Positions 8,666-35,488 of a DNA stretch of 64,000 nt are shown one piece after another. Under the pieces are notes generated by a model. The model was given only the letters and a program-made list of their open reading frames with translations. It did no database searches and was not told the origin of the DNA. This DNA is from an uncultured Maribacter sp. (GTDB lineage Bacteria > Bacteroidota > Bacteroidia > Flavobacteriales > Flavobacteriaceae), in contig CANNFY010000006.1 of assembly GCA_947504045.1 (NCBI GenBank), forward strand, positions 62,001-126,000, read 5' to 3'. Each line of letters opens with the position of its first letter. The stretch's first letter is position 1. The position numbers were made by a program, and so were the translations under genes.

Positions 8666-10441
8666 TTAGTGTGATGATGCTTCTCCTGCACCACTAGGTA
8701 TTCGGATACTTTCTACAATTTCTTGTACATTTTTTGGTGGTGCAGGTGTAACTCTAGATACTATTATAGATACAATTATATTTATAAACATTGCAAATGT
8801 TCCAAAACCTTCTGGAGAGGTGCCTAGCCACCATTCACTTGCAGGTCTTGGATCCATAACACCTATTAAGCCTGTTTTGTATCTAATCATATAAAATAGC
8901 ATAAGAGATATTCCTACGACCATGCCAGCAATAGCACCTTCTTTATTCATACGTTTGTCAAAAATTCCTAATACAATTGCAGGAAAAAAAGATGCAGCAG
9001 CTAAGCCAAATGCTAGAGCAACCACAGCAGCAACAAACCCAGGTGGATATATTCCGAATATTCCAGCAATTATAATTGCTACTACTATGGCAATGCGTGC
9101 AGCTACTAATTCTCCTTTTTCAGAGATATTTGGTTTTAGTTGTTTTTTAATTAAATCGTGCGAAATAGAGGTAGATATTACGAGTAGTAACCCTGCAGCC
9201 GTAGATAATGCTGCGGCCAAACCACCAGCTGCAACTAGGGCAATAACCCAATTGGGTAAATTTGCAATTTCTGGGTTTGCTAGAACCATAATATCGCGGT
9301 CAACATAAAGTTCATTAGCAGAGTTATTTGCATTTGAAATTAAACGTTCTCCGTTTGCACCTCTTTTATTTGTGTAAATAGGTTTTTTGCTAGATAATGC
9401 ATTACCTGCTACATACTGTATTTTTCCATCTTTATTTTTATCAGACCAAGCAATTAAGCCAGTGTTTTCCCAATTTTTAAACCATTCTGGTATAGAGTTG
9501 TATTCTTTATTACTTACAGTCTCTATTAAATTGGTTCTAGAAAATACTGCAATTGCTGGTGCTGTGGTGTACAAAATTGCAATTAGTAATAGGGCGTAGC
9601 CTGCAGATTTACGAGCGTCTTTTACTTTAGGTACTGTAAAAAAACGAACAATTACATGTGGCAGTCCTGCAGTACCAGCCATTAATGCCATAGTAATAGC
9701 AAAAATATCCCAAGTAGATTTTGTTCCACTAGTGTATTCCTTAAAACCTAATTGGGTGTGTAGCGTATCTAATTTATCTAATAAATATACTCCTTCTTCT
9801 ACTTTGCTCCCCATACCAAATTGTGGAATTGGATTTCCTGTCATTTGTATGGATATAAAAAAAGCAGGAACCATAAAAGCAAAAATTAATACACAGTATT
9901 GTGCTACTTGTGTATAGGTTATTCCTTTCATTCCGCCTAAAAATGCAAATATTAAAACTACTGCCATGCCAATAACTACACCTAGGGTAATATCTACTTG
10001 CAAAAATTGAGAAAAAACAATACCAACTCCTCGCATTTGTCCTGCAACATAAGTGAAGGAAACTATTAAGGCGCATACTATAGCAACGGTTCTTGCAGTA
10101 TTAGAATAGTAGCGATCTCCAATAAAATCGGGTACTGTAAATTTGCCAAATTTGCGTAAGTAAGGCGCTAGGAGTAAGGCTAATAAAACATAACCTCCAG
10201 TCCATCCCATAAGGTATACAGAGCCATCATAACCAGCAAAAGAAATAATGCCAGCCATTGAAATAAATGAGGCGGCACTCATCCAGTCTGCAGCAGTAGC
10301 CATACCGTTTGCTAAAGGAGAAACTCCGCCTCCTGCAACATAAAATTCTTTAGTAGAACCTGCTCGTGCCCAAATTGCAATTCCAAAATAAAGAGAAAAT
10401 GTTATGCCAACTAAAATCCATGTCCATACTTGAACGCTCAT
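8666..10441 (-). CDS. sodium:solute symporter, VC_2705 type large subunit (probable acetate)
   Basis: A 591-residue sodium/solute symporter with about 13 membrane helices. It matches the SSF fold of acetate permease ActP: GGGVSPLANGMATAADWMSAASF near residues 37-60 and ALSTAAGLLLVISTSISHDL in the middle. The long periplasmic insertion around residues 300-390 and the small DUF4212 partner immediately upstream mark the two-subunit VC_2705 subfamily rather than classical ActP. The acs gene downstream makes acetate or another short-chain acid the likely substrate. The gap to the small subunit is 25 bases, consistent with one transcript. Confidence 0.88.
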   Translation of the reverse strand: MSVQVWTWILVGITFSLYFGIAIWARAGSTKEFYVAGGGVSPLANGMATAADWMSAASFISMAGIISFAGYDGSVYLMGWTGGYVLLALLLAPYLRKFGKFTVPDFIGDRYYSNTARTVAIVCALIVSFTYVAGQMRGVGIVFSQFLQVDITLGVVIGMAVVLIFAFLGGMKGITYTQVAQYCVLIFAFMVPAFFISIQMTGNPIPQFGMGSKVEEGVYLLDKLDTLHTQLGFKEYTSGTKSTWDIFAITMALMAGTAGLPHVIVRFFTVPKVKDARKSAGYALLLIAILYTTAPAIAVFSRTNLIETVSNKEYNSIPEWFKNWENTGLIAWSDKNKDGKIQYVAGNALSSKKPIYTNKRGANGERLISNANNSANELYVDRDIMVLANPEIANLPNWVIALVAAGGLAAALSTAAGLLLVISTSISHDLIKKQLKPNISEKGELVAARIAIVVAIIIAGIFGIYPPGFVAAVVALAFGLAAASFFPAIVLGIFDKRMNKEGAIAGMVVGISLMLFYMIRYKTGLIGVMDPRPASEWWLGTSPEGFGTFAMFINIIVSIIVSRVTPAPPKNVQEIVESIRIPSGAGEASSH

Positions 10442-10825: not shown

Positions 10826-10871
10826 TATCATAAAATGATAGAATAGTGTTATTGCGGATAAAAAATAACAC
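10826..10871 (-). terminator. weak hairpins at the end of anmK
   Basis: Two small inverted repeats lie at the 3' end of anmK: GTGTTATT/AATAACAC overlapping the stop codon region, then TATCAT/ATGATA. They are AT-rich with only short T-tracts, so termination is plausible but not certain. Confidence 0.35.
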
Positions 10872-11928
10872 CAGAACAGGAGTCTTTTTTAGCTCCTGTA
10901 ACAGAGCTAAGAACATTGGTTTTATTCTGAAATTTTAAAACTCCCATTAAAGCAAAAATTAGCGCTTCTTTAAACTCTATAACGGTTTTAGAAGGTACAA
11001 CTATTGTAGCTATGTTTTGTAATTCTTTTTTTAGAATTTCAATTAAAAAAGTATTTAATGCACCACCTCCAGTAATTAAAAGTGTAGCTTTTTTATTTAC
11101 AGTGTTTTGTTTTATTTGGATAGTTATTTGTTGGCATATATGTATTACAGCTGTATGTAGTAAATTTGGAACTGTATCAGCTGTTTTATCTACTATCGGA
11201 ATAACTTCATTCAAAAACCATTCGTAGCCAATAGATTTTGGATAGGGTAGTTTGTAAAACTCTAAAGCATTTAATTTTTCTAATAATTTTAAATTTAATT
11301 TTCCGGAGCGCCCTAATTCCCCATTTTTATCGTACGGAATATCAATTTTTTGTGCTATGTAATTTAGTATCATATTAGCAAGGCCAATATCATAAGCAAT
11401 TCTGTTTTCTCCTTTTTGGAAAGATATATTACTAATGCCGCCAAGGTTTAAGCAAAAATCATATTCTTTAAAAAATAGCATATCACCTATAGGAACTAGT
11501 GGAGCCCCCTGTCCGCCAAGAGAAACATCATTAGTTCTGTAATCGTTAATTACAGTTTGGTTACAGGCGTTTGCAATATGTTGTCCGCTACCAATTTGAT
11601 AGGTAATTCCTTTTTTTGGTTGATGGTGTGTGGTATGTCCATGACTAGCAATAAAATCAACGTTTAAGTTATTTTCATCAATAAATTTTTTTGTTTGTAT
11701 TCCTAACCAGGTACCGTATGTATTGTTTAATTCTAATAGATTTAAAGCAGATAAATGAATGGCATTTTTAAGATTGTTTTTCATTTCTGGTGTATAGTCT
11801 ACACTTTTTGTTTCTGCAATTGTATATTCATATACTCCGTCTATATCTGAAATTTTACAGTAAGCCAAATCTAACCCGTCTAAAGATGTGCCAGACATTA
11901 AACCAATAACATTATATTCTTTTTTCAT
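10849..11928 (-). CDS. anmK: anhydro-N-acetylmuramic acid kinase
   Basis: Phosphorylates and hydrolyses 1,6-anhydro-MurNAc to MurNAc-6-phosphate in the cytoplasm, the step before MurQ in peptidoglycan recycling. It has 359 residues, close to the family length. The ATP-binding N-terminus carries MSGTSLDGLD at 11-20; GLANMILNYIA and the TGGGALNTFL stretch mark the sugar-kinase fold. It lies 6 bases after nagZ, the last gene of the nagB-GHL10-ampG-nagZ-anmK operon. Neighbourhood and sequence agree, so identity is secure. Confidence 0.95.
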   Translation of the reverse strand: MKKEYNVIGLMSGTSLDGLDLAYCKISDIDGVYEYTIAETKSVDYTPEMKNNLKNAIHLSALNLLELNNTYGTWLGIQTKKFIDENNLNVDFIASHGHTTHHQPKKGITYQIGSGQHIANACNQTVINDYRTNDVSLGGQGAPLVPIGDMLFFKEYDFCLNLGGISNISFQKGENRIAYDIGLANMILNYIAQKIDIPYDKNGELGRSGKLNLKLLEKLNALEFYKLPYPKSIGYEWFLNEVIPIVDKTADTVPNLLHTAVIHICQQITIQIKQNTVNKKATLLITGGGALNTFLIEILKKELQNIATIVVPSKTVIEFKEALIFALMGVLKFQNKTNVLSSVTGAKKDSCSGVIFYPQ

Positions 11929-11934
11929 AATAAT

Positions 11935-13521
11935 CTATGTAATAGATACGGGTAATTTTCCTTTTGCTTCTAGTTTTTCTAAAAAATGATACGCTGCTAC
12001 TTCTTTAAATTCCTTAAAATCTTGATATGCAATAATTACTTTATTGGCTTTTTTAAAATTTATAAGATTAAGAATATACGGATTGCCAAATAGGTATACA
12101 ATTACTTTTTTGTTTTGTAACAGCTCAGCAATAAAATTCCAATAATCTTCAGGAATATCAAACTTGTTTTGAGGTTTTACTTTTGGTACTTCTATACTTA
12201 AGAGGATGTTTTTTTCTGTTGTAATTTTTGTTTTTATTTCTGAAATAGATGCGTTATTAAGAGTGTAAAAGTTAAACTCTTTTGTTTTTTGTATGGTATT
12301 GAAAAAAGTAGTGTCTTTGTTAAAATTTATTCCAATTCCTGTAAAAGAATTTTTATTAAAATAAGTGTTTGAGTTTTCTATTTGAGTGATGCTTTTTTTA
12401 GCAATTTCTGTAAGTAACGTAGTTTGTTTACAAGCAATTACTTCTTTAATTTTGGGTGGATTTAAAGCTTTTTCTTTTAGTTGCCATATTCTTTTAAAAC
12501 TTTCTTCAATAGCAGTTGTATCAGCATTTTTTAGAATAGTTTCTATCCCTTCTTTGGTGTTTTCTGCAAAACATAAAATGTCATTTCCAGCATCAAAAGC
12601 TAGACCTTCTAATTCTCCTTTTATAGGATAGTTTTTAGAAACGGCATGCATGTTTAAAGCATCGGAAATTACCACTCCTTTAAACCCCATTTTTTTTCGT
12701 AATACACCTTTAATAATATCTTTAGATATGCTAGAAGATATTTTACTTCCGTTTGCTAAGTTAGGAACAGATAAATGTCCTATCATTACCGAGTCTACAC
12801 CAGATTCAATAGCTTTTTTAAACGGATATAATTCATTCTCCCATAAAATAGTTTTAGATTTTTCTATTAAAGGCAGTGTTAAATGCGAATCTTTATTTGT
12901 GTCTCCATGCCCAGGAAAATGCTTAATACTTGTTAATACTCCAGCTTCTTGGGTTCCTTTTATAAAGGCAATTGCTTTTTTGGTAACTTCTTCTTTATCC
13001 TCGCCATAAGAGCGATAGCCAATTACAGGATTGTTAGGATTGTTATTTATGTCTACTACAGGTGCTAAATTCCAATGGATACCTGCTGCCCTACAATCTA
13101 AAGCTATATTTTTTCCAACCTGTTCTATTAAATCTAAATTATCTTCTATGGCGCCTAAGCAAATAGCATAAGGGTATTGTGCTGTATTTTCTATACGCAT
13201 TGCTAATCCCCATTCAGCATCAATACTTATTAAAAGAGGATGTTTAGAAGCTTTTTGGTATCTGTTAATTAAATATTTAAGAGTGTTTAAGCTATTGGTA
13301 TTATAAATAATTTTTTTTTTGCCTTCAAAATTTGTGGCAGCACTTGCTCTACTATGAAAAAAGCATAATCCGCCAATATTGTGTTTTTTTATCAAGTTTT
13401 CTAAAACACAAATTTCTTCTTCGGTGTCATTTATAAAAGCTGCAGGCATAAAAAATTGTCCAACTTTTTCTTTACTAGTTAGTGTTTTTGTTGCGGTAGA
13501 ATAGGAAGGTATTTTAGGCAT
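11935..13521 (-). CDS. nagZ: NagZ-type beta-N-acetylhexosaminidase (GH3), cytoplasmic
   Basis: Cleaves GlcNAc from GlcNAc-anhydroMurNAc (peptides) imported by AmpG. It has 528 residues without a signal peptide. The GH3 N-acetylglucosaminidase signature KHFPGHGDT is at 200-208 with the His/Asp acid-base dyad, DSH at 211-213, and the nucleophile Asp287 in SDALNM. About 180 C-terminal residues make it longer than the 341-residue E. coli enzyme and resemble the extra domain of Bacillus NagZ. It overlaps ampG by 8 bases, giving tight coupling between import and cleavage. A secreted paralogue fused to a beta-lactamase-fold domain is encoded at 51547-54456. Confidence 0.93.
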   Translation of the reverse strand: MPKIPSYSTATKTLTSKEKVGQFFMPAAFINDTEEEICVLENLIKKHNIGGLCFFHSRASAATNFEGKKKIIYNTNSLNTLKYLINRYQKASKHPLLISIDAEWGLAMRIENTAQYPYAICLGAIEDNLDLIEQVGKNIALDCRAAGIHWNLAPVVDINNNPNNPVIGYRSYGEDKEEVTKKAIAFIKGTQEAGVLTSIKHFPGHGDTNKDSHLTLPLIEKSKTILWENELYPFKKAIESGVDSVMIGHLSVPNLANGSKISSSISKDIIKGVLRKKMGFKGVVISDALNMHAVSKNYPIKGELEGLAFDAGNDILCFAENTKEGIETILKNADTTAIEESFKRIWQLKEKALNPPKIKEVIACKQTTLLTEIAKKSITQIENSNTYFNKNSFTGIGINFNKDTTFFNTIQKTKEFNFYTLNNASISEIKTKITTEKNILLSIEVPKVKPQNKFDIPEDYWNFIAELLQNKKVIVYLFGNPYILNLINFKKANKVIIAYQDFKEFKEVAAYHFLEKLEAKGKLPVSIT

Positions 13522-14788
13522 TGTCTGTATTTTGTTTTTTACCGTATTCTGCAGGGTATTTAATATATTTTAATAGAATTAAAGAAGGAAGTGCAGCAAC
13601 AACTACCCAAATAAAAAAACCGCTGTAGCCTAGCCACTCTTGCATATAACCACTGATCATACCTGGTAGCATCATACCTAAAGCCATAAATCCTGTTGCT
13701 ATAGCGTAATGCGATGTTTTAGATTTACCTTCGGCAATATAAATTAGGTACATAAGAAAAGCGGCAAAACCAAAACCATAACCAAATTTTTCAAAAACAA
13801 CAGTTGCTGTTACAGCAATAATATTGGTTGTTTTTGTTACTGCTAATATTGCATAAAAAATATTAGGAACATTAAGGGATAGTACCATAGGTAACATCCA
13901 TTTTTTTAGTCCGTCTCTAGATATTAATATACCGCCTAATATTCCGCCAATAGATAGCATTATTACGCCAGCAGTACCAAATAAAGTACCTAATTTTTCG
14001 GTTGAGAAAGCAAGGCCTCCTTTACTAATTTCATCTAACATAAAAGGAGCAGCCATTTTTACTAATTGCGATTCTCCTAAACGATAGGTAAGAATAAATG
14101 CTAGAGCAATTCCTATGTTAGGTTTATTAAAAAAAGAACTTAAAATTGTACCGAAACTTTGTGGTTGATCCTTGTTAGTGGTATTCTCATTTTCATATTT
14201 AGGAGCAGTAAAAAAGTTGCCTATTGTTAGGGCAAGCATTAAGCCTGCTGCGGCAATCATAGTAATGCTCCATGCTTTGTTGCTATCGCCGTATTTAGTT
14301 TCTAAAAACCCTGCTAGTATAACAATTAAGCCTTCTCCGGTAACCATTGCTAGTCTATAAAAAGTACTACGCATACCTACAAAAAAAGATTGTTTTTTTT
14401 CTGAAAGTCCTAGCATGTAATAACCATCAGAAGCTATATCATTAGTAGCAGATGCAAACGCGGCCATCCAAAAACAGGCAAGAGTAGTAGTAAAAAATAA
14501 ATTGGTAGGCAGTGTTAATCCTACACCTAAAAGTGCAAGAGTAATAAGGAATTGCATGCCTAAAAACCATTTGCGTTTTGTACTTTTTAAATCTACAAAA
14601 GGGCTCCATAATGGTTTTAAAACCCAAGGTAAATATAGCCAGCTTGTGTATAATCCAATATCGGCATTACTAACACCTAATTTTTTATACATAATTACAG
14701 ATACTGTAACTACCATTACATAAGGGAGACCTTGAGTAAAATATAAAATTGGAACCCATGCCCAAGCACCTTTATCTTTTTTTATCAT
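13514..14788 (-). CDS. ampG: AmpG-family muropeptide permease
   Basis: Inner-membrane MFS transporter that imports GlcNAc-anhydroMurNAc and its peptides. It has 424 residues and about 12 membrane helices. The N-terminus WVPILYFTQGLPY followed by LYLPWVLKPLWSP is characteristic of the AmpG group, as is SDGYYML in helix 4. The ATG overlaps the GHL10 stop codon (ATGA), and its own end overlaps nagZ by 8 bases. The gene order places transport between periplasmic glycan cleavage and cytoplasmic NagZ/AnmK. Substrate range (with or without peptide) cannot be read from sequence. Confidence 0.92.
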   Translation of the reverse strand: MIKKDKGAWAWVPILYFTQGLPYVMVVTVSVIMYKKLGVSNADIGLYTSWLYLPWVLKPLWSPFVDLKSTKRKWFLGMQFLITLALLGVGLTLPTNLFFTTTLACFWMAAFASATNDIASDGYYMLGLSEKKQSFFVGMRSTFYRLAMVTGEGLIVILAGFLETKYGDSNKAWSITMIAAAGLMLALTIGNFFTAPKYENENTTNKDQPQSFGTILSSFFNKPNIGIALAFILTYRLGESQLVKMAAPFMLDEISKGGLAFSTEKLGTLFGTAGVIMLSIGGILGGILISRDGLKKWMLPMVLSLNVPNIFYAILAVTKTTNIIAVTATVVFEKFGYGFGFAAFLMYLIYIAEGKSKTSHYAIATGFMALGMMLPGMISGYMQEWLGYSGFFIWVVVAALPSLILLKYIKYPAEYGKKQNTDNA

Positions 14789-16290
14789 GGTCTTAAATTT
14801 AATACTATTGGTTCAGTTTCTTGCCCATAATAATCAATAAAACTAACCGCTATTTGTTTTTTTCTTTTAAATTCTTTTATAGGAATTATAAATTGATGCT
14901 TGTTGTTAATGTGGGTTTTGGAGCGTAATTTAGTAATAGGGTAGCTTTCTTTTAGTTTTTTGCCACTACTATAGCATAAGGCGTACCTAATATTATGAGG
15001 TGTATTTATAGAAAATTGGATAGAGTCGGATGTTGTTTTTACATCTTTAATTTTAACCTTCTTTATGGTTTCTTTTTTTAAAGGAGAAATAGGGTTTAAT
15101 GCCGGGTTTTGGTAATATTTTTTTTGAATGTATTTTACAACATCCGGATTCTTTTGCATTAAAGATTTGGCACTAAAAAAAGCATTTCCATCCATTTCTT
15201 TAGTATTTCTAGTAAGATTTAATTGATTAGGTAGTTCTTTTTTACTGTCCCAAGCCTTGTCGCTATTGTTTCTAATTTTATAAGCGCCATTTCCAATATA
15301 AATGTTACTATTACTTTTATTTTTTGCCCACCAATGTACTATTTTATGATGCGATGCTACTGGTAAATTCATACTCCAATATACTTGTGGAATAACATAG
15401 TCTACCCAACCATTTTGCATCCATAACAATGGGTCAGCATATAAATCCTCATAAGTGGTAACTCCTGCCTTTGTATCGGAGCCTTTTGGGTCTGTAGAAT
15501 TATTTTTCCAAACCCCAAATGGACTTACGCCAAACTGTACCCAAGGTTTTTCTTTTTTAATGGTTTGATGTGCTTTTTTTATTAAAGAATCTATATTACT
15601 CCTTCGCCAGTCTTCTTTACTTTGGTTGGGTAGTTTGTAAAACTCAAAACAAGATTGATCTTCAAATACAGCATCTTTAATTTTATACGGATAAAAATAA
15701 TCATCAAAATGTATAGCATCAATGTCATAATTTCGAACTAATTCTTTCATTATAAAGGTTAGTTTTTCTCTAACTTCTGGCAATCCAGGGTTGTAATAGT
15801 ATTTTTTACCATACTTTATCATCCACTCCGGATGGCTATTAAAGTCGTGTGTAGGACTTAGAATTTCTGTCTTTAAATCGAAGGTTGCTCTGTAGGGGTT
15901 TAACCAAGCATGAAATTCCATTCCACGATTGTGAGCTTCAGAAATCATCCAGTCTAACATTTTAAAATTATGATCAGTTGGTGTTCCTTCTTTACCGGTT
16001 AAATATCTAGACCACGGTGCGTAGTTAGATTTATAAAAGGAATCTCCTGCAGCTCTAATTTGCACTATAACAGCATTAAAGTTTAGTTCTTTATAAAAGT
16101 CTAGAATTTTTATGTAGTCTTCCTTTTGTTTTTGTATAGAATCTAGGCCGTTTTTTGGCCAGTCTATATTTGCTACTGTAGCAATCCAAACACCTCTAAA
16201 CTCGTGTTTTGGTTGTGGTATTGTTTTAAAAACGGAGCAAGAGTTTAAAGAAAAAATAAAAAGTATTAGAACAAGTAATTTTTTAAACAT
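14785..16290 (-). CDS. GHL10/DUF187 family glycosyl hydrolase lipoprotein (DigH-like)
   Basis: A 501-residue lipoprotein (lipobox SLNSC, acylated Cys18). The glycosyl-hydrolase-like family 10 barrel starts at EFRGVWIATVANIDWP and continues through GMEFHAWLNPYR, AIHFDDYFYPY and DYVIPQVYWS. Asp/Glu residues in HFDDYFYP fit the active site. A C-terminal beta-sandwich-like region (about 400-501) follows. E. coli YddW/DigH of this family cleaves denuded peptidoglycan strands; that function is inferred here from the location between nagB and ampG. Its ATG directly follows a hairpin plus T-tract that could act as an attenuator. Alternative: hydrolase of another polysaccharide. Confidence 0.85.
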   Translation of the reverse strand: MFKKLLVLILFIFSLNSCSVFKTIPQPKHEFRGVWIATVANIDWPKNGLDSIQKQKEDYIKILDFYKELNFNAVIVQIRAAGDSFYKSNYAPWSRYLTGKEGTPTDHNFKMLDWMISEAHNRGMEFHAWLNPYRATFDLKTEILSPTHDFNSHPEWMIKYGKKYYYNPGLPEVREKLTFIMKELVRNYDIDAIHFDDYFYPYKIKDAVFEDQSCFEFYKLPNQSKEDWRRSNIDSLIKKAHQTIKKEKPWVQFGVSPFGVWKNNSTDPKGSDTKAGVTTYEDLYADPLLWMQNGWVDYVIPQVYWSMNLPVASHHKIVHWWAKNKSNSNIYIGNGAYKIRNNSDKAWDSKKELPNQLNLTRNTKEMDGNAFFSAKSLMQKNPDVVKYIQKKYYQNPALNPISPLKKETIKKVKIKDVKTTSDSIQFSINTPHNIRYALCYSSGKKLKESYPITKLRSKTHINNKHQFIIPIKEFKRKKQIAVSFIDYYGQETEPIVLNLRP

Positions 16291-16343: not shown

Positions 16344-18275
16344 TTAATCAAATTTATGTCTTACAAAAGCTTCCATAGCTGCGTAATCCGATAACCCGAG
16401 TGCTCTGTATCGAGCGGCAGTATCTTTATTACGCTCTTCGGCTCTCATCCAAAACTCTCTAGAATCGTCTCCTTGAAACATTACACCATCTTTTTGCGAT
16501 TGGTGGCAGAATATTGCATAACGTTTTTTAAGTACTTGTCCTGGGCTCATTGGAACAGCCATTTCTATTTCATTAATATCCCATTCGTGCCAAGCGCCTC
16601 TATAAAGCCATAACCAACAATCTTTCATAAATTCTTCGGATTGCATTTGTTTCATAGCTTCAAAAACAGCATCAAGACAAACTTTATGTGTGCCATGTGG
16701 GTCTGCTAAATCTCCTGCAGCAAAAATTTGATGCGGTTTAATTTCTCTAATATAATCTTTCATTATCAGAACATCAACCTCAGATAAGTTGTCTTTTTTT
16801 ATTGTTCCTGTTTCATAAAAAGGAAGGTCCAGAAAACGTACATTGGCATCATCAAGGCCTACATATCTTGTAGCGGCGTAAGACTCACTACGTCTTATGT
16901 TTCCTTTTAATTTTCTAACCTCTAGCGTATCAAAACTACTTTCGTTTTTACTTTTAATAGAGTCTATAAGTTTTTGAGCTTCATCAGAAGAGCTAATACG
17001 TTTTGCTATTTCTGCATATCTAATAGCATCGGTATCTGAAACAGCAATGTTTCCAGAAGTTTGGTAGGCAACATGTACTTCATGTCCTTGTTCTACTAAT
17101 CTATCAAAAGTACCTCCCATAGAAATAACGTCATCGTCTGGGTGAGGACTAAAAATAATAACACGTTTTTTTGCAGGTAAAGCTCTTTCAGGTCTACTTG
17201 TGTCATCTGCATTTGGTTTTCCTCCAGGCCACCCTGTAATAGTATGTTGTAGTCTGTTAAACATTTTTATGTTTAAATCGTATGAATCTTGCGCAGATAG
17301 TAAGCCAGACATACCATTGTCATTATAATCTTTATCTGTTAAGCTTAAAATAGATTTGTTGTTTTCGTTACAAAGCCAAACAATTGCTTTTGCCGTTAAA
17401 CTTTCTGTCCATTCTAAAGACTCATCAACTAACCATGGAGTTTTATTTCTGGTTAATTCGGCACCTGCAGCAGAATCAAGTACAAATGTGCAGTTTTTAT
17501 GTTGTTGTAAATATGTAGCAGGTACATGAGAGGATATTTCTCCTTCTACCGTTTTTTTAATAATCTCGGCTTTATTTTGTCCCCAACCAAGTAAAACAAG
17601 TCTTTTGGCGTTCATTACAGTAGAAATTCCCATTGTAATGGCTTTTTTAGGAACATTATCTATTCCTAAAAAGGCAGGAGCAGCATCTACTCTTGTAATA
17701 TGGTCTAGTGTTATAACTCTAGTACCAGAATTATAATGTGAGCCAGGTTCGTTAAAACCAACATGACCAGTTCTACCAATACCTAATAATTGAAAGTCTA
17801 ATCCGCCAAACTTTTTAATTGCTTGCTCATAGGCTAAGCAATAATCGATAACAAATTCTGGAGCAATAGTTCCGTCAGGAATATGAATATTTTCACTAGG
17901 AATATCAATATGATTAAATAAATGTTCGTGCATAAAGAACCAATAACTCTGTCGGTTATCTTTTTCCATTGGTAAATACTCGTCCAAATTAAATGTAACT
18001 ACATTAGAAAAGCTTAACCCTTCTTCTTTATGCATTCTTACAAGTTCTTCATATACTCTAATAGGGGAGGAGCCAGTAGCTAAACCTAATACACAATTTT
18101 TCTTTGCATCTTGTTTTTTGCGTATTAAAGCTGCTATTTCATGCGCAACTTTAATTGATGCTTCGTTCGAATCTTCGAAAATTACATTGTGTATTTTTTC
18201 AAAACGAGTTTCTTCAAAATGACCTACTGGTTTATAACCAATATCAATTCCAGTCTTTTTTTCTTTTTGTGCCAT
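16344..18275 (-). CDS. nagB: glucosamine-6-phosphate deaminase fused to PIG-L/LmbE deacetylase-like domain
   Basis: NagB converts GlcN-6-P to fructose-6-P and ammonia. From the chosen ATG the protein has 643 residues. Residues about 20-300 are the NagB domain: TGSSP near 68, catalytic Asp98 in NLDEY, and GIGRTGHVGFNEP at 165-177. E. coli has Asp141 where this protein has Thr169. Residues about 370-600 form a PIG-L/LmbE domain with HPDDD (His378) and HGTH (His527, His530) as likely metal ligands. Long NagB proteins of this type are known in Bacteroidota. An in-frame ATG at 18293 is also possible; one at 18335 lies upstream of the -7 box and is rejected. First gene of the salvage operon. Confidence 0.92.
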   Translation of the reverse strand: MAQKEKKTGIDIGYKPVGHFEETRFEKIHNVIFEDSNEASIKVAHEIAALIRKKQDAKKNCVLGLATGSSPIRVYEELVRMHKEEGLSFSNVVTFNLDEYLPMEKDNRQSYWFFMHEHLFNHIDIPSENIHIPDGTIAPEFVIDYCLAYEQAIKKFGGLDFQLLGIGRTGHVGFNEPGSHYNSGTRVITLDHITRVDAAPAFLGIDNVPKKAITMGISTVMNAKRLVLLGWGQNKAEIIKKTVEGEISSHVPATYLQQHKNCTFVLDSAAGAELTRNKTPWLVDESLEWTESLTAKAIVWLCNENNKSILSLTDKDYNDNGMSGLLSAQDSYDLNIKMFNRLQHTITGWPGGKPNADDTSRPERALPAKKRVIIFSPHPDDDVISMGGTFDRLVEQGHEVHVAYQTSGNIAVSDTDAIRYAEIAKRISSSDEAQKLIDSIKSKNESSFDTLEVRKLKGNIRRSESYAATRYVGLDDANVRFLDLPFYETGTIKKDNLSEVDVLIMKDYIREIKPHQIFAAGDLADPHGTHKVCLDAVFEAMKQMQSEEFMKDCWLWLYRGAWHEWDINEIEMAVPMSPGQVLKKRYAIFCHQSQKDGVMFQGDDSREFWMRAEERNKDTAARYRALGLSDYAAMEAFVRHKFD

Positions 18276-18322
18276 AATTAATGTTTCTAACATAAGGTTT
18301 AAACTAAATTTTAAGAACACAG

Positions 18323-18330
18323 CAAATGTA
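18323..18330 (-). promoter_or_regulatory. -7 promoter box of the nagB operon
   Basis: Reads TACATTTG on the minus strand, an exact TAnnTTTG match. Transcription would begin near 18317, excluding the ATG at 18335 and leaving a 24-42 base leader to the two downstream ATGs. The -33 position is occupied by a TAAAACGG box instead of TTTG. Confidence 0.65.
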
Positions 18331-18331
18331 G

Positions 18332-18345
18332 GCATAAAAACAGCA
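18332..18345 (-). promoter_or_regulatory. degenerate operator-like box A at the nagB promoter
   Basis: GCATAAAAACAGCA differs in two positions from GCATAAAACGGCA-type boxes nearby, allowing for one extra A. It abuts the nagB -7 box and would block RNA polymerase if bound. It is the weakest member of the set. Confidence 0.35.
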
Positions 18346-18348
18346 TAT

Positions 18349-18362
18349 TTGCCGTTTTATGC
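18349..18362 (-). promoter_or_regulatory. operator box B (GCATAAAACGGCAA, minus strand)
   Basis: Identical over 14 bases to box C, 22 bases away, about two helical turns. Its TAAAACGG core ends 21 bases before the nagB -7 box, covering the -33 region. It is the probable binding site for the divergent DeoR-family regulator. Confidence 0.7.
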
Positions 18363-18370
18363 TTTTTATT

Positions 18371-18384
18371 TTGCCGTTTTATGC
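18371..18384 (-). promoter_or_regulatory. operator box C (GCATAAAACGGCAA, minus strand)
   Basis: A perfect 14-base copy of box B in the same orientation. The repeated element and helical spacing argue for cooperative binding of one regulator on one face of the DNA. Confidence 0.7.
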
Positions 18385-18407
18385 AATTTTTATTAATGTG
18401 GTAATAT

Positions 18408-18415
18408 TAAAACGG
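18408..18415 (+). promoter_or_regulatory. operator half-box D (TAAAACGG, plus strand)
   Basis: Core-only copy of the box, pointing toward the regulator gene and exactly 10 bases upstream of box E. It mirrors box C on the other side of the control region. Confidence 0.55.
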
Positions 18416-18416
18416 A

Positions 18417-18427
18417 ATAAAACGGCA
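18417..18427 (+). promoter_or_regulatory. operator box E (ATAAAACGGCA, plus strand)
   Basis: Eleven-base match to boxes B and C in the opposite orientation. Its TAAAACGG core ends 19 bases before the regulator gene's -7 box, so it occupies the -33 position just as box B does at nagB. This fits autoregulation. Confidence 0.65.
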
Positions 18428-18444
18428 TTTTTGTTAATATTGAT

Positions 18445-18452
18445 TATCTTTG
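18445..18452 (+). promoter_or_regulatory. -7 promoter box of the regulator-murQ operon
   Basis: TATCTTTG, an exact TAnnTTTG match, 31 bases before the ATG of the DeoR-family gene. No TTTG -33 element at the right distance; box E is there instead. Confidence 0.65.
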
Positions 18453-18483: not shown

Positions 18484-19233
18484 ATGTTAAAAGAAGAAAG
18501 ACAGCAAACTATTTTAAGGGTAGTAGAGCTTCATAATAGAATATTATTGACAGATATTGCAGAAACCTTAGATGTTTCTATAGATACTATTCGACGTGAT
18601 GTAAAAGAATTAGATGCAGATAATAAGCTTAAAAAGGTTCATGGTGGAGCAATATCGTTAGGGTTTACCACCAATAGTGTAAAAAATAAAAATATATATA
18701 AATTAGAGCAGAAGACAATTATTGCAGAAAAAGCCGCAGCCTTACTTAAAGATGGTTCTGTAATATTTGTAGATGGTGGTACTACTTGTAACGAGTTGGC
18801 AAGATTAATTCCTAATAACTTAGATTTAACTTGTTTTACCCATAGTATACCTGTTGCTATGGAACTACTTACAAAATCTAATGTAACCGTAATTTTAATT
18901 GGCGGGCAAGTTTCTAAAGAATCGCAAATTTCTATTGGAGCCAATGCTATTCATAATCTTTCAGAAATAAAAGTTGATTACAGCTTTATTGGTACGGGTT
19001 ATGTAGATTCTTATTATGGACTTACAGAGTTTGATTGGGATATTGTTCAAGTAAAAAAAGCAATTATAAAATGTTCTAAGAAAACCGTATTGTTATCCAT
19101 TTCAGAAAAACTAAATTCGCAGCATCGGTATAAAAGTTGTGATATTAATGCTATTAATACCATGATTACCGAATTGGAACCGGAAAATGAGTTGCTTAAC
19201 TCTTTTAGAAATCACGACATTAGAATTTTATAA
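18484..19233 (+). CDS. DeoR/GlpR-family transcriptional regulator of amino-sugar salvage
   Basis: A 249-residue cytoplasmic DNA-binding protein. The N-terminal winged helix-turn-helix (about 5-57) contains LTDIAETLDVSIDTIRRDVKELD, followed by the family signature KKVHGGA. The C-terminal DeoR sensor domain carries FVDGGTTCNELA and KVDYSFIGTGYVD and normally binds a sugar phosphate. It is divergent from nagB and 5 bases upstream of murQ. The repeated TAAAACGG boxes at both promoters are its probable sites. A sugar-6-phosphate such as GlcNAc-6-P or MurNAc-6-P is the likely effector, but that is inference; repression and activation cannot be distinguished here. Confidence 0.9.
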   Translation: MLKEERQQTILRVVELHNRILLTDIAETLDVSIDTIRRDVKELDADNKLKKVHGGAISLGFTTNSVKNKNIYKLEQKTIIAEKAAALLKDGSVIFVDGGTTCNELARLIPNNLDLTCFTHSIPVAMELLTKSNVTVILIGGQVSKESQISIGANAIHNLSEIKVDYSFIGTGYVDSYYGLTEFDWDIVQVKKAIIKCSKKTVLLSISEKLNSQHRYKSCDINAINTMITELEPENELLNSFRNHDIRIL

Positions 19234-19238
19234 ATACT

Positions 19239-20048
19239 ATGAGTTATATTAAAATAACAGAAGCGTCTTCTAATCATGATAATTTAGAACAATTAGACAC
19301 GGCATCTATCCTTAAAAAAATGAATGAGGAAGATAAAAAAGTGGCAGATGCTGTGGCAGAAGTAATTCCGCAAATAACAAAATTAGTAGATGGTTTAGAA
19401 GAAAGGTTTTATAAAGAAGGAAGACTCTTTTACATTGGGGCAGGCACAAGTGGCAGATTAGGAATTTTAGACGCTTCTGAAATTCCGCCAACCTTTGGAA
19501 TGCCACATGAAAGAGTAATTGGTTTAATTGCCGGTGGAGATACCGCAATACGAAAAGCAGTGGAAAATGCAGAAGATGCAACCAACCAGGCATGGAAAGA
19601 TTTAGAAGCGCATAATATAACTAAAATAGACGTTGTTGTAGGAATAGCGGCATCTGGCACAACACCTTATGTGTTAGGAGGTATAAAAGCAGCTAAAGAA
19701 AAAGGGTTGTTAACTGCAGGTATAACTAATAACCCAGGCTCTCCTTTAGCGCAATTAGCTGAAATTCCAATAGAAATAAATGTAGGACCAGAGTTTGTAA
19801 CTGGTAGTACAAGAATGAAAAGCGGAACCTCGCAAAAGTTAGCTTTAAATATGATTTCTACAGCTTTAATGATACGTATAGGTAGAGTTAAAGGAAATAA
19901 AATGGTAAACATGCAACTTACTAATGATAAGTTGGTAGATAGAGGTACTCGTTATATAATGGAGGCTTTAGATATTTCGTATAAAAAAGCAGAGGAATTA
20001 TTAAAACAATATGGCTCTGTTAAATTAGCAATTGAGGCTAAAAAATAA
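19239..20048 (+). CDS. murQ: N-acetylmuramic acid 6-phosphate etherase
   Basis: Splits the lactyl ether of MurNAc-6-P to give GlcNAc-6-P and D-lactate in the cytoplasm. It has 269 residues, slightly shorter than E. coli MurQ. The SIS domain carries GAGTSGRLG at 68-75 and the catalytic Glu81 in DASEIPPTFG; GIAASGTTPYV and EFVTGSTRMKSGT are further family signatures. It is cotranscribed with the DeoR-family gene (5-base gap) and converges on the cytochrome c gene with only 2 bases between. It completes the route from AnmK toward NagB. Confidence 0.95.
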   Translation: MSYIKITEASSNHDNLEQLDTASILKKMNEEDKKVADAVAEVIPQITKLVDGLEERFYKEGRLFYIGAGTSGRLGILDASEIPPTFGMPHERVIGLIAGGDTAIRKAVENAEDATNQAWKDLEAHNITKIDVVVGIAASGTTPYVLGGIKAAKEKGLLTAGITNNPGSPLAQLAEIPIEINVGPEFVTGSTRMKSGTSQKLALNMISTALMIRIGRVKGNKMVNMQLTNDKLVDRGTRYIMEALDISYKKAEELLKQYGSVKLAIEAKK

Positions 20049-34465: not shown

Positions 34466-35488
34466 TTAAAAAGTATACCTAGCTTTTGCGGTAATATCTT
34501 GTTTAGAAAACAAAGCTTCTTGGTATTTTAAATAGCCTACAATACCAATCATTGCAGCATTGTCTGTACAATACTCAAATTTAGGAATATAGGTTATCCA
34601 TTGGTTGGTCTTTTCTTTGTCTTTAAGAACTTTTCGTATGCCAGAATTAGCAGATACACCACCGCCAATTGCAATTTGCTTAATTCCGGTTTTCTTAACT
34701 GCATTTTTAAGTTTCAGTACTAATATTTTTATTATAGTGTATTGTATAGATGCGCAAATATCTTCTAAGTTATTAGAAATAAAATTTGGGTCTTTTTCCA
34801 CTTCTTTTTTAATAAAATATAAAATACTGGTTTTTAAACCGCTAAAACTAAAATCTAACTCGCCAACTTTTGGAATAGGGAACTCGTATTTTTTAGGATT
34901 TCCTTCTGCAGCATGTTTGTCAATTAAAGGTCCACCAGGATAGGGTAGTCCTAATAATTTTGCACTTTTATCAAATGCTTCCCCAACAGCATCATCAAGT
35001 GTTTGTCCTAAGACTTCCATTTTAAAATAATCTTTAACTAAAACAATTTGGGTATGACCACCACTAATAGTTAATCCAATAAATGGAAAAGTAGGTTTTG
35101 TATTGTCTTTGTCGGCTATAAAATGAGCAAGCAGATGCGCTTGCATATGGTTAACTTCAATTAAAGGGATGTTTAAACCTAATGCTAAAGACTTTGCAAA
35201 GGAGGTGCCAACCAATAAAGAACCCATTAATCCTGGTCCACGAGTAAAAGCTATGGCAGATAACTGTTTTTTATCGATATTTGCTTTAGCTAAAGCTTGG
35301 TGTACTACCGGAACAATATTTTGTTGGTGTGCACGAGATGCAAGTTCTGGAACAACACCCCCATATTCTTTATGAATTTTTTGGGTTGCTACTACATTAC
35401 TTAAGACTTCATCGTTGCATAAAACTGCAGCAGAGGTATCATCACAAGAAGATTCTATTGCAAGAATGTAAATAGTTTTAGTTTGCAC
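34466..35488 (-). CDS. tsaD: tRNA N6-adenosine threonylcarbamoyltransferase TsaD
   Basis: Transfers the threonylcarbamoyl group to A37 of ANN-decoding tRNAs with TsaB/TsaE. It has 340 residues, the family length. ILAIESSCDDTSAAV opens the protein, the Fe-binding His114 and His118 lie in NHMQAHLLAHF, and GGVSANSGIRK closes the nucleotide site. The start is GTG at 35488; no in-frame ATG exists upstream. A full promoter (-33 TTTG at 35539-35542, -7 TACCTTTG at 35515-35522) leaves a leader of about 20 bases. It is divergent from tamB. Confidence 0.95.
   Translation of the reverse strand: MQTKTIYILAIESSCDDTSAAVLCNDEVLSNVVATQKIHKEYGGVVPELASRAHQQNIVPVVHQALAKANIDKKQLSAIAFTRGPGLMGSLLVGTSFAKSLALGLNIPLIEVNHMQAHLLAHFIADKDNTKPTFPFIGLTISGGHTQIVLVKDYFKMEVLGQTLDDAVGEAFDKSAKLLGLPYPGGPLIDKHAAEGNPKKYEFPIPKVGELDFSFSGLKTSILYFIKKEVEKDPNFISNNLEDICASIQYTIIKILVLKLKNAVKKTGIKQIAIGGGVSANSGIRKVLKDKEKTNQWITYIPKFEYCTDNAAMIGIVGYLKYQEALFSKQDITAKARYTF

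What the first reader, a model, noticed from the sequence alone, without database searches (positions are those of the whole stretch)
18323..18452. Symmetric four- to five-box control region between nagB and the DeoR-family regulator
Two identical 14-base boxes (18349-18362, 18371-18384) point toward nagB and two related boxes (18408-18415, 18417-18427) point toward the regulator. The box nearest each promoter ends 21 and 19 bases before an exact TAnnTTTG -7 element, so it replaces the -33 element on both sides. This predicts one regulator controlling both operons from the -33 position, as an activator substituting for -33 contacts or a repressor blocking them. Seen directly in the sequence; the regulator-site pairing is inferred from divergence.
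Basis: partly seen in the sequence, partly recalled or inferred. Interest (0 to 1): 0.7.

Follow-up and report, generated by a model that had tools for sequence, protein, structure and literature searches.

The report
Divergent operator of cell-wall-recycling genes
Between two back-to-back operons for recycling cell-wall sugars in a flavobacterium lies a conserved set of repeated sites that very probably bind the regulator encoded next to them; this is a new example of a known kind of gene switch, with an unusual fixed rotational spacing across the two promoters.

Summary
Two identical GCATAAAACGGCA boxes face nagB and one double box faces the DeoR-type regulator, each upstream of a TAnnTTTG element. 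79 of 80 related loci keep the gene pair, and the boxes are conserved as direct repeats of GCA with a 10-bp period. Elsewhere in this genome, 27 of 29 examined near matches lie in coding sequence. The same nagB gene without a regulator beside it lacks the box (24 of 24 readable loci; 5 of 5 with it have it). Regulator homologues beside SusC-like genes carry the same architecture (11 of 12). So these are almost certainly the regulator's operators, of the direct-repeat type reported for other DeoR-family regulators. The inference from 'replacing the -33 element' is weak: about three quarters of candidate promoters here lack a -33 TTG. I favour a self-regulating repressor released by an amino-sugar phosphate. 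Unexpectedly, the distance between left and right operators changes almost only by 0-1 bp or whole helical turns, while leader lengths in the same sequences drift freely. This suggests one phase-locked complex across both promoters.

The parts
18349..18362 (-). Operator box 1 for the nagB promoter: GCATAAAACGGCAA on the minus strand (two GCA half-sites, 10-bp period); about -31 to -44 of the predicted nagB start
   Evidence: 18 or 19 bases from TAnnTTTG in 88 of 98 measured rows
18371..18384 (-). Operator box 2, identical copy 22 bp (two turns) further from nagB
   Evidence: 22 or 23 bp in 68 of 70 rows measured
18407..18427 (+). Double operator for the regulator promoter: TTAAAACGGAATAAAACGGCA, two tandem half-sites 10 bp apart
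   Evidence: 15-17 bases from TAnnTTTG in 86 of 98 measured rows
18323..18330 (-). -7 element TACATTTG of nagB; predicted start about 18318
   Evidence: TAnnTTTG at -12 to -5 in Flavobacterium psychrophilum, PMC9723704 passages; start not mapped
18445..18452 (+). -7 element TATCTTTG of the regulator; predicted start about 18457
   Evidence: as above
18322..18334 (+). GCA-N7-GCA (GCAAATGTAGGCA) lying across the nagB -7 element; possible weak extra operator
   Evidence: TGCnTAnnTTTGC on the nagB strand in 34 of 75 rows versus TGCnTA in 3 of 80 regulator promoters
18484..19233 (+). DeoR-family regulator (HTH_DeoR plus DeoRC)
19239..20048 (+). murQ, N-acetylmuramic acid 6-phosphate etherase, 5 bp after the regulator
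16344..18275 (-). nagB-like deaminase fused to a PIG-L deacetylase domain; likely start 18275, not the upstream ATG at 18335
   Evidence: 29 of 79 relatives align from residue 1 and 61 of 79 from residue 12 or before
14785..16290 (-). GHL10 glycosyl-hydrolase-like protein, probably same operon
13514..14788 (-). AmpG-like muropeptide transporter (below the curated NCBIfam cut-offs)
11935..13521 (-). GH3 (NagZ-like) hexosaminidase (below the NCBIfam cut-off for NagZ)
10849..11928 (-). anmK, anhydro-N-acetylmuramic acid kinase

Best explanation
The region is the operator of the DeoR-family regulator encoded at 18484-19233. The regulator binds GCA-N7-GCA direct-repeat sites: two before nagB and one before its own gene. 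From there it controls both the nagB-GHL10-ampG-nagZ-anmK operon and the regulator-murQ operon, i.e. recycling of peptidoglycan amino sugars. Shown: the sites, their conservation, their linkage to the regulator, their near-fixed distance to TAnnTTTG. Inferred: binding itself; that it is a repressor that covers the -33 regions and is released by MurNAc-6-P, GlcNAc-6-P or GlcN-6-P; that proteins on the left and right sites touch, which would explain the conserved helical phase between them.
For: 79 of 80 related loci keep nagB divergent from the regulator with the boxes. In the window's genome, box plus TAnnTTTG occurs at both promoters here and at one other place, inside an open reading frame. 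Among 60 genomes (the window's own included) a strict box-plus-promoter pattern occurs in 5, each time at this locus. nagB with the regulator beside it: best box 13/13 in 5 of 5; without: 8-11/13 in 24 of 24 readable loci (L188 dropped because its gene starts at the contig end). Regulator homologues elsewhere have GCA-N7-GCA upstream in 11 of 12. Direct repeats with a 10-11 bp period are what was reported for DeoR-family RhaR regulators, one of them shown to bind its site and to be released by L-rhamnulose (PMC3870299 passages). Helical phase: nearest-pair differences of 2-8 bp in 0 of 73 pairs for the left-right distance versus 24 of 72 and 16 of 73 for the two leaders.
Against: No binding, transcription-start or expression data. 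Repressor is a family prior (recalled), not a result: the NCBIfam matches also include an L-fucose operon activator, below its cut-off. The distance from box to -7 is kept nearly fixed, which an occluding repressor does not need and an activator does. The sequences compared are related, so counts are not independent; 22 of 120 rows could not be measured by the script, ten of them not by hand either. Two of the 29 examined matches elsewhere in the genome are not in an open reading frame (L108, L109) and 11 of 41 matches were not examined.
Confidence: 0.66

Rival explanations
1. The regulator is an activator that sits over the -33 region of both promoters and recruits RNA polymerase in place of a -33 contact.
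For: Box to -7 distance is nearly constant: left 18 or 19 in 88 of 98, right 15 or 16 in 84 of 98 rows. No TTG at -33 in either promoter.
Against: 86 of 112 candidate promoters in this genome lack the -33 TTG anyway. The commonest left and right distances differ by 3 bp, which turns the sites about a third of a turn relative to the polymerase. In a few relatives the measured gap to -7 is a whole turn shorter (8-9 in 5 of 98), awkward for an activator centred near -37. Most characterised DeoR-family members are repressors (recalled).
Confidence: 0.2
2. The boxes belong to another, unlinked regulator that happens to control this gene pair.
For: No direct binding evidence for the linked regulator.
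Against: The box is present with the regulator beside nagB and absent without it; regulator homologues at other loci have the same kind of site; no other promoter with box plus TAnnTTTG was found in the genome.
Confidence: 0.05
3. The boxes are mainly phased A-tracts that bend the DNA, and the helical phasing reflects bending rather than protein-protein contact.
For: Boxes hold runs of 4-6 A at about 10-bp steps.
Against: The GCA letters and the C are as conserved as the A-run or more (95-100%); the sites follow the regulator.
Confidence: 0.08

Closest known systems
DeoR-family RhaR regulons (several phyla; PMC3870299, passages read)
   Same: DeoR-family regulator of a sugar pathway; operator made of two imperfect direct repeats with 10-11 bp period; divergent operons in Rhizobium; local regulon
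   Different: Different sequence (GCA-N7-GCA), different pathway (peptidoglycan amino sugars), two sites on one side and one on the other, phase kept across the gap
MurR of Escherichia coli (recalled)
   Same: Regulator beside murQ that controls MurNAc-6-P use
   Different: MurR is RpiR/SIS family; this one is DeoR family
NanR (ROK) of Bacteroides thetaiotaomicron, sialic acid and GlcNAc regulon (PMC3878776, passages read)
   Same: Regulator of amino-sugar use in the same phylum
   Different: Other protein family; the main text has 0 occurrences of DeoR, MurNAc, peptidoglycan or nagB
GppX control of the ampG operon of Tannerella forsythia (PMC5388701, passages read)
   Same: Control of muropeptide uptake genes in Bacteroidota
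   Different: Hybrid two-component activator, not a DeoR protein

Membership tests
DeoR-family transcriptional regulators | N-terminal HTH_DeoR and C-terminal DeoRC sensor domain | tested here: met
   Pfam HTH_DeoR E 7.1e-13, DeoRC E 6.3e-41; all ten NCBIfam matches are below their cut-offs, so no named subfamily
DeoR-family operators with direct repeats | Two direct repeats, 10-11 bp period | tested here: met
   GCA-N7-GCA in window and relatives; period as in PMC3870299
DeoR-family operators with direct repeats | Binding by the cognate regulator, released by a sugar or sugar phosphate | not testable with these tools
   Needs purified protein
MurR/RpiR regulators of murQ | HTH_6 plus SIS domain (recalled) | tested here: not met
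   No such domain among the regulator's Pfam matches
Bacteroidota primary sigma promoter | TAnnTTTG -7 element | tested here: met
   Exact on both sides; starts not mapped
Bacteroidota primary sigma promoter | -33 TTG about 20 bases upstream | tested here: not met
   Absent in both; but present in only 26 of 112 candidate promoters of the genome

The most novel reading that the evidence does not exclude
The divergent promoters share one helically phase-locked nucleoprotein complex: regulator molecules on the two left sites and the right site touch each other across gaps of about 32, 43 or 65 bp, so that evolution allows the gap to change only by whole turns, and the complex also keeps a fixed register to RNA polymerase at both promoters. 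Such a switch would set both operons together and in a fixed ratio.
Probability: 0.35. Interest if true: 0.55.

Novelty: new member of a known kind. Interest (0 to 1): 0.42.

Why it matters
It assigns a DNA motif, a target set and a likely kind of signal to an unstudied regulator whose relatives occur in 79 of 397 sampled genomes of the family at E <= 1e-70, paralogs included, for a pathway (cell-wall sugar recycling) whose control in Flavobacteriaceae did not appear in the listings of my library searches. The phase-locked spacing gives a sharp, cheap test of cooperative regulation across a divergent promoter in Bacteroidota.

Tried and rejected
Exact search for TAAAACGG or its complement upstream of the regulator was negative in most relatives; the degenerate half-site view showed conservation, so the 8-mer test alone would have misled.

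A regulon beyond this locus in the same genome: 41 matches with up to one mismatch, 30 of them given loci. 11 of 41 were not examined; one of these is the right-hand box here and one is in the window at 35417.

A -33 control on the relatives' loci gave only 39 promoters and no TTG excess (5 of 39 at gaps 18-22 versus 6 of 39 at gaps 8-12); repeated on 800 kb of the own genome with 112 promoters (the script stopped with an index error in its last loop, after the counts used here).

One search gave left-right spacings of 22-23 in four rows, 35 in one and 165 in one. From the printed sequences these look like the script choosing a neighbouring half-site, a shifted A-run or a wrong box; re-measured with other anchors. 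One search covered only gaps 17-20 on the left; (gaps 5-34 left, 5-29 right) is the wide one.

In one search the row L188 is not usable: its gene starts at the contig end and the script read a wrong stretch; I dropped it (24 of 24 instead of 25 of 25; Fisher p 8e-6; one search had used 25).

Literature on this regulator or motif; nothing on this regulon was listed. The session's structure tools were not used.

Full report
WHAT IS THERE. The window lies in a draft genome of 3.46 Mb in 42 contigs, evidently a flavobacterium: the nearest regulator in the named collection is 95% identical, from Aurantibacter crassamenti. Left of the region, on the minus strand, lie a NagB-PIG-L fusion (16344-18275), a GHL10 protein, an AmpG-like transporter, a GH3 hexosaminidase and AnmK; right of it, on the plus strand, a DeoR-family regulator (18484-19233) and MurQ. 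Gene gaps or overlaps of -8 to 53 bp suggest one operon on each side. Together they make a peptidoglycan amino-sugar recycling set. The ORF list starts nagB at 18335, but that is upstream of its own -7 element; 18275 is the likely start (29 of 79 relatives align from its first residue and 61 of 79 from residue 12 or before).

THE SITES. The coordinates in the finding are right. The sites are best read as GCA half-sites with a 10-bp period: GCATAAAACGGCA twice on the left, 22 bp apart, and CGGAATAAAACGGCA on the right. Using the -12 to -5 position of TAnnTTTG (PMC9723704, passages), the left sites lie at about -32 to -44 and -54 to -66 of nagB and the right one at about -49 to -30 of the regulator. 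By count alone the motif in the window is only mildly above chance; its conservation is not.

CONSERVATION. Of 250 relatives of the regulator found in the GTDB collection the best 80 were kept. 79 of these have nagB divergent beside it; the one without starts at the contig end. murQ follows in 79 (the exception, L020, ends soon after the regulator), and GHL10, ampG, nagZ and anmK are found in 66, 66, 67 and 67 of 80 (contig ends not corrected). In the 63 left promoters with gap 18, the letters GCA, C and GCA of box 1 are 95-100% conserved, while the 18 bases from box to -7 run from 40 to 86%, 16 of 18 at 71% or less (75 of 80 rows aligned on the left, with gaps 17-20 allowed; dropped: L052, L068, L070, L076, L081). 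On the right all 80 rows aligned.

LINK TO THE REGULATOR. Three tests. First, box plus TAnnTTTG at 14-19 bases gives three matches in the own genome: the two promoters here and one inside an open reading frame. A stricter pattern in 60 genomes gives matches in 5, the own genome included, each at this locus. By eight of these 60 are listed as carrying the regulator at E <= 1e-60 (G000, G182, G396, G399, G400, G411, G418, G426), so 5 of 8 carriers and 0 of the 52 others; three carriers are missed because their boxes differ from the exact pattern. Second, the same nagB-PIG-L gene in 30 loci (of 52 matches; 22 matches got no locus): 5 with the regulator beside it have a 13/13 box; of 25 without, 24 could be read and have best scores of 8-11 (Fisher p 8e-6, relatedness ignored; L183 among the 24 has a 39%-identical DeoR protein nearby; loci reach only about 1.5 kb beyond the gene). 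Third, twelve homologues of 51-65% identity that do not sit beside nagB: for eleven a divergent ORF was found, and its translation looks like a SusC/TonB-dependent receptor (my reading of the sequence, no domain search); for L163 none was found. GCA-N7-GCA pairs occur upstream in 11 of 12, against 0.04-0.28 on average in resampled sequence; in 8 of 12 at most 1% of resamples reach the count, in L288, L290 and L297 4.5-15% do, and L164 has none. More distant homologues (42-47% identity) show similar sites in several but not all cases (by eye).

THE -33 ARGUMENT. In 800 kb of the own genome, 112 of 330 ORFs with at least 70 bp upstream have TAnnTTTG at a suitable place (26 for the reversed pattern). 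TTG peaks 20 bases upstream (10% versus mostly 1-4%), so a -33 element exists, but only 26 of 112 have TTG within 17-22 bases, against 12 of 112 at control distances (p 0.02). A smaller set showed no excess. Lack of -33 TTG is thus ordinary and says little about activation. The sites do overlap the place where a -33 element would be.

PHASE. From the first left TGC to the end of the right GCA, the distance is 77-79 in 39, 87-88 in 31, 110 in 2 and 67 in 1 of 73 measured rows of 80. On the regulator tree this needs 8 changes between classes and 20 of exact value (quick tree; starred branches force at least 2 for each of the two large classes). Forty further loci with non-identical regulators were added, 120 rows in all; 98 could be measured with a wide range of gaps allowed: 93 fall at 77-79, 87-88 or 110, and the other five are 54, 55, 65, 67 and 68, i.e. 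10-12 or 23 bp short. Between nearest pairs the distance differs by 2-8 bp in 0 of 73 pairs (41 equal, 19 by 1, 13 by 10 or more); the nagB leader differs by 2-8 in 24 of 72 and the regulator leader in 16 of 73 (Fisher among changed pairs 2e-6 and 1e-4). Restricted to the 93 rows, 1 of 69 pairs differs by 2-8 (by two bp) against 23 and 17 for the leaders. Limits: pairs are not independent; picking a neighbouring half-site makes 10-bp steps by itself, though it cannot make the 2-8 bp class vanish; 22 of 120 rows were not measured. Of these, twelve can be read by hand: L066, L068, L070, L073, L076, L081 and L282 77, L279 78, L158 86, L052 87, L274 88 (or 78), L243 89. The other ten (L122, L280, L281, L285, L286, L287, L289, L292, L293, L299) lack recognisable sites on one side and could break the rule. 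In L280, L287 and L289 the left sites seem turned round.

MECHANISM. Most likely the regulator binds as a multimer over both -33 regions, represses both operons including its own, and lets go when an amino-sugar phosphate accumulates; MurNAc-6-P, GlcNAc-6-P and GlcN-6-P are all possible from the genes, and none was tested. For repression: family habit (recalled), sites over the -33 regions, a possible extra site across the nagB -7 element (TGCnTAnnTTTGC in 34 of 75 rows). For activation: the near-fixed distance to -7. I put repressor first, activator second.

KNOWN OR NEW. The kind is known: DeoR-family regulators with direct repeats of 10-11 bp (PMC3870299, passages). This regulon and motif were not listed in searches of the open-access library; subscription papers and RegPrecise itself were not searchable. 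Hence a new member of a known kind, with phase-locking as the point worth testing.

Noticed in passing
16344-18275: NagB is fused to a PIG-L deacetylase domain, and the genome (99.7% complete) has no NagA match above the TIGR00221 cut-off (best 24 bits against 225.65; 7 of the 14 control genomes are also below it). The PIG-L half may do the missing GlcNAc-6-P deacetylation. No paper held all three terms searched.
   Followed up: partly
L161-L164, L288, L290, L291, L294-L298, upstream of the regulator: Homologues of this regulator (51-65% identity) in other Flavobacteriaceae: 11 of 12 stand divergent to SusC-like receptor genes and 11 of 12 have GCA-N7-GCA sites upstream, so the subfamily seems to serve several sugar loci with one kind of site.
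   Followed up: partly
18322-18334: GCA-N7-GCA across the nagB -7 element, seen as TGCnTAnnTTTGC in 34 of 75 rows; could be an extra operator or an extended -7.
   Followed up: partly
L280, L287, L289, region between nagB and the regulator: Left boxes appear in the opposite orientation to the usual one (by eye).
   Followed up: no
8666-10441: A symporter gene (SSS type by my reading) on the same strand lies 407 bp beyond anmK and a match to it is found near in 43 of 80 related loci; whether it belongs to the regulon was not tested.
   Followed up: no
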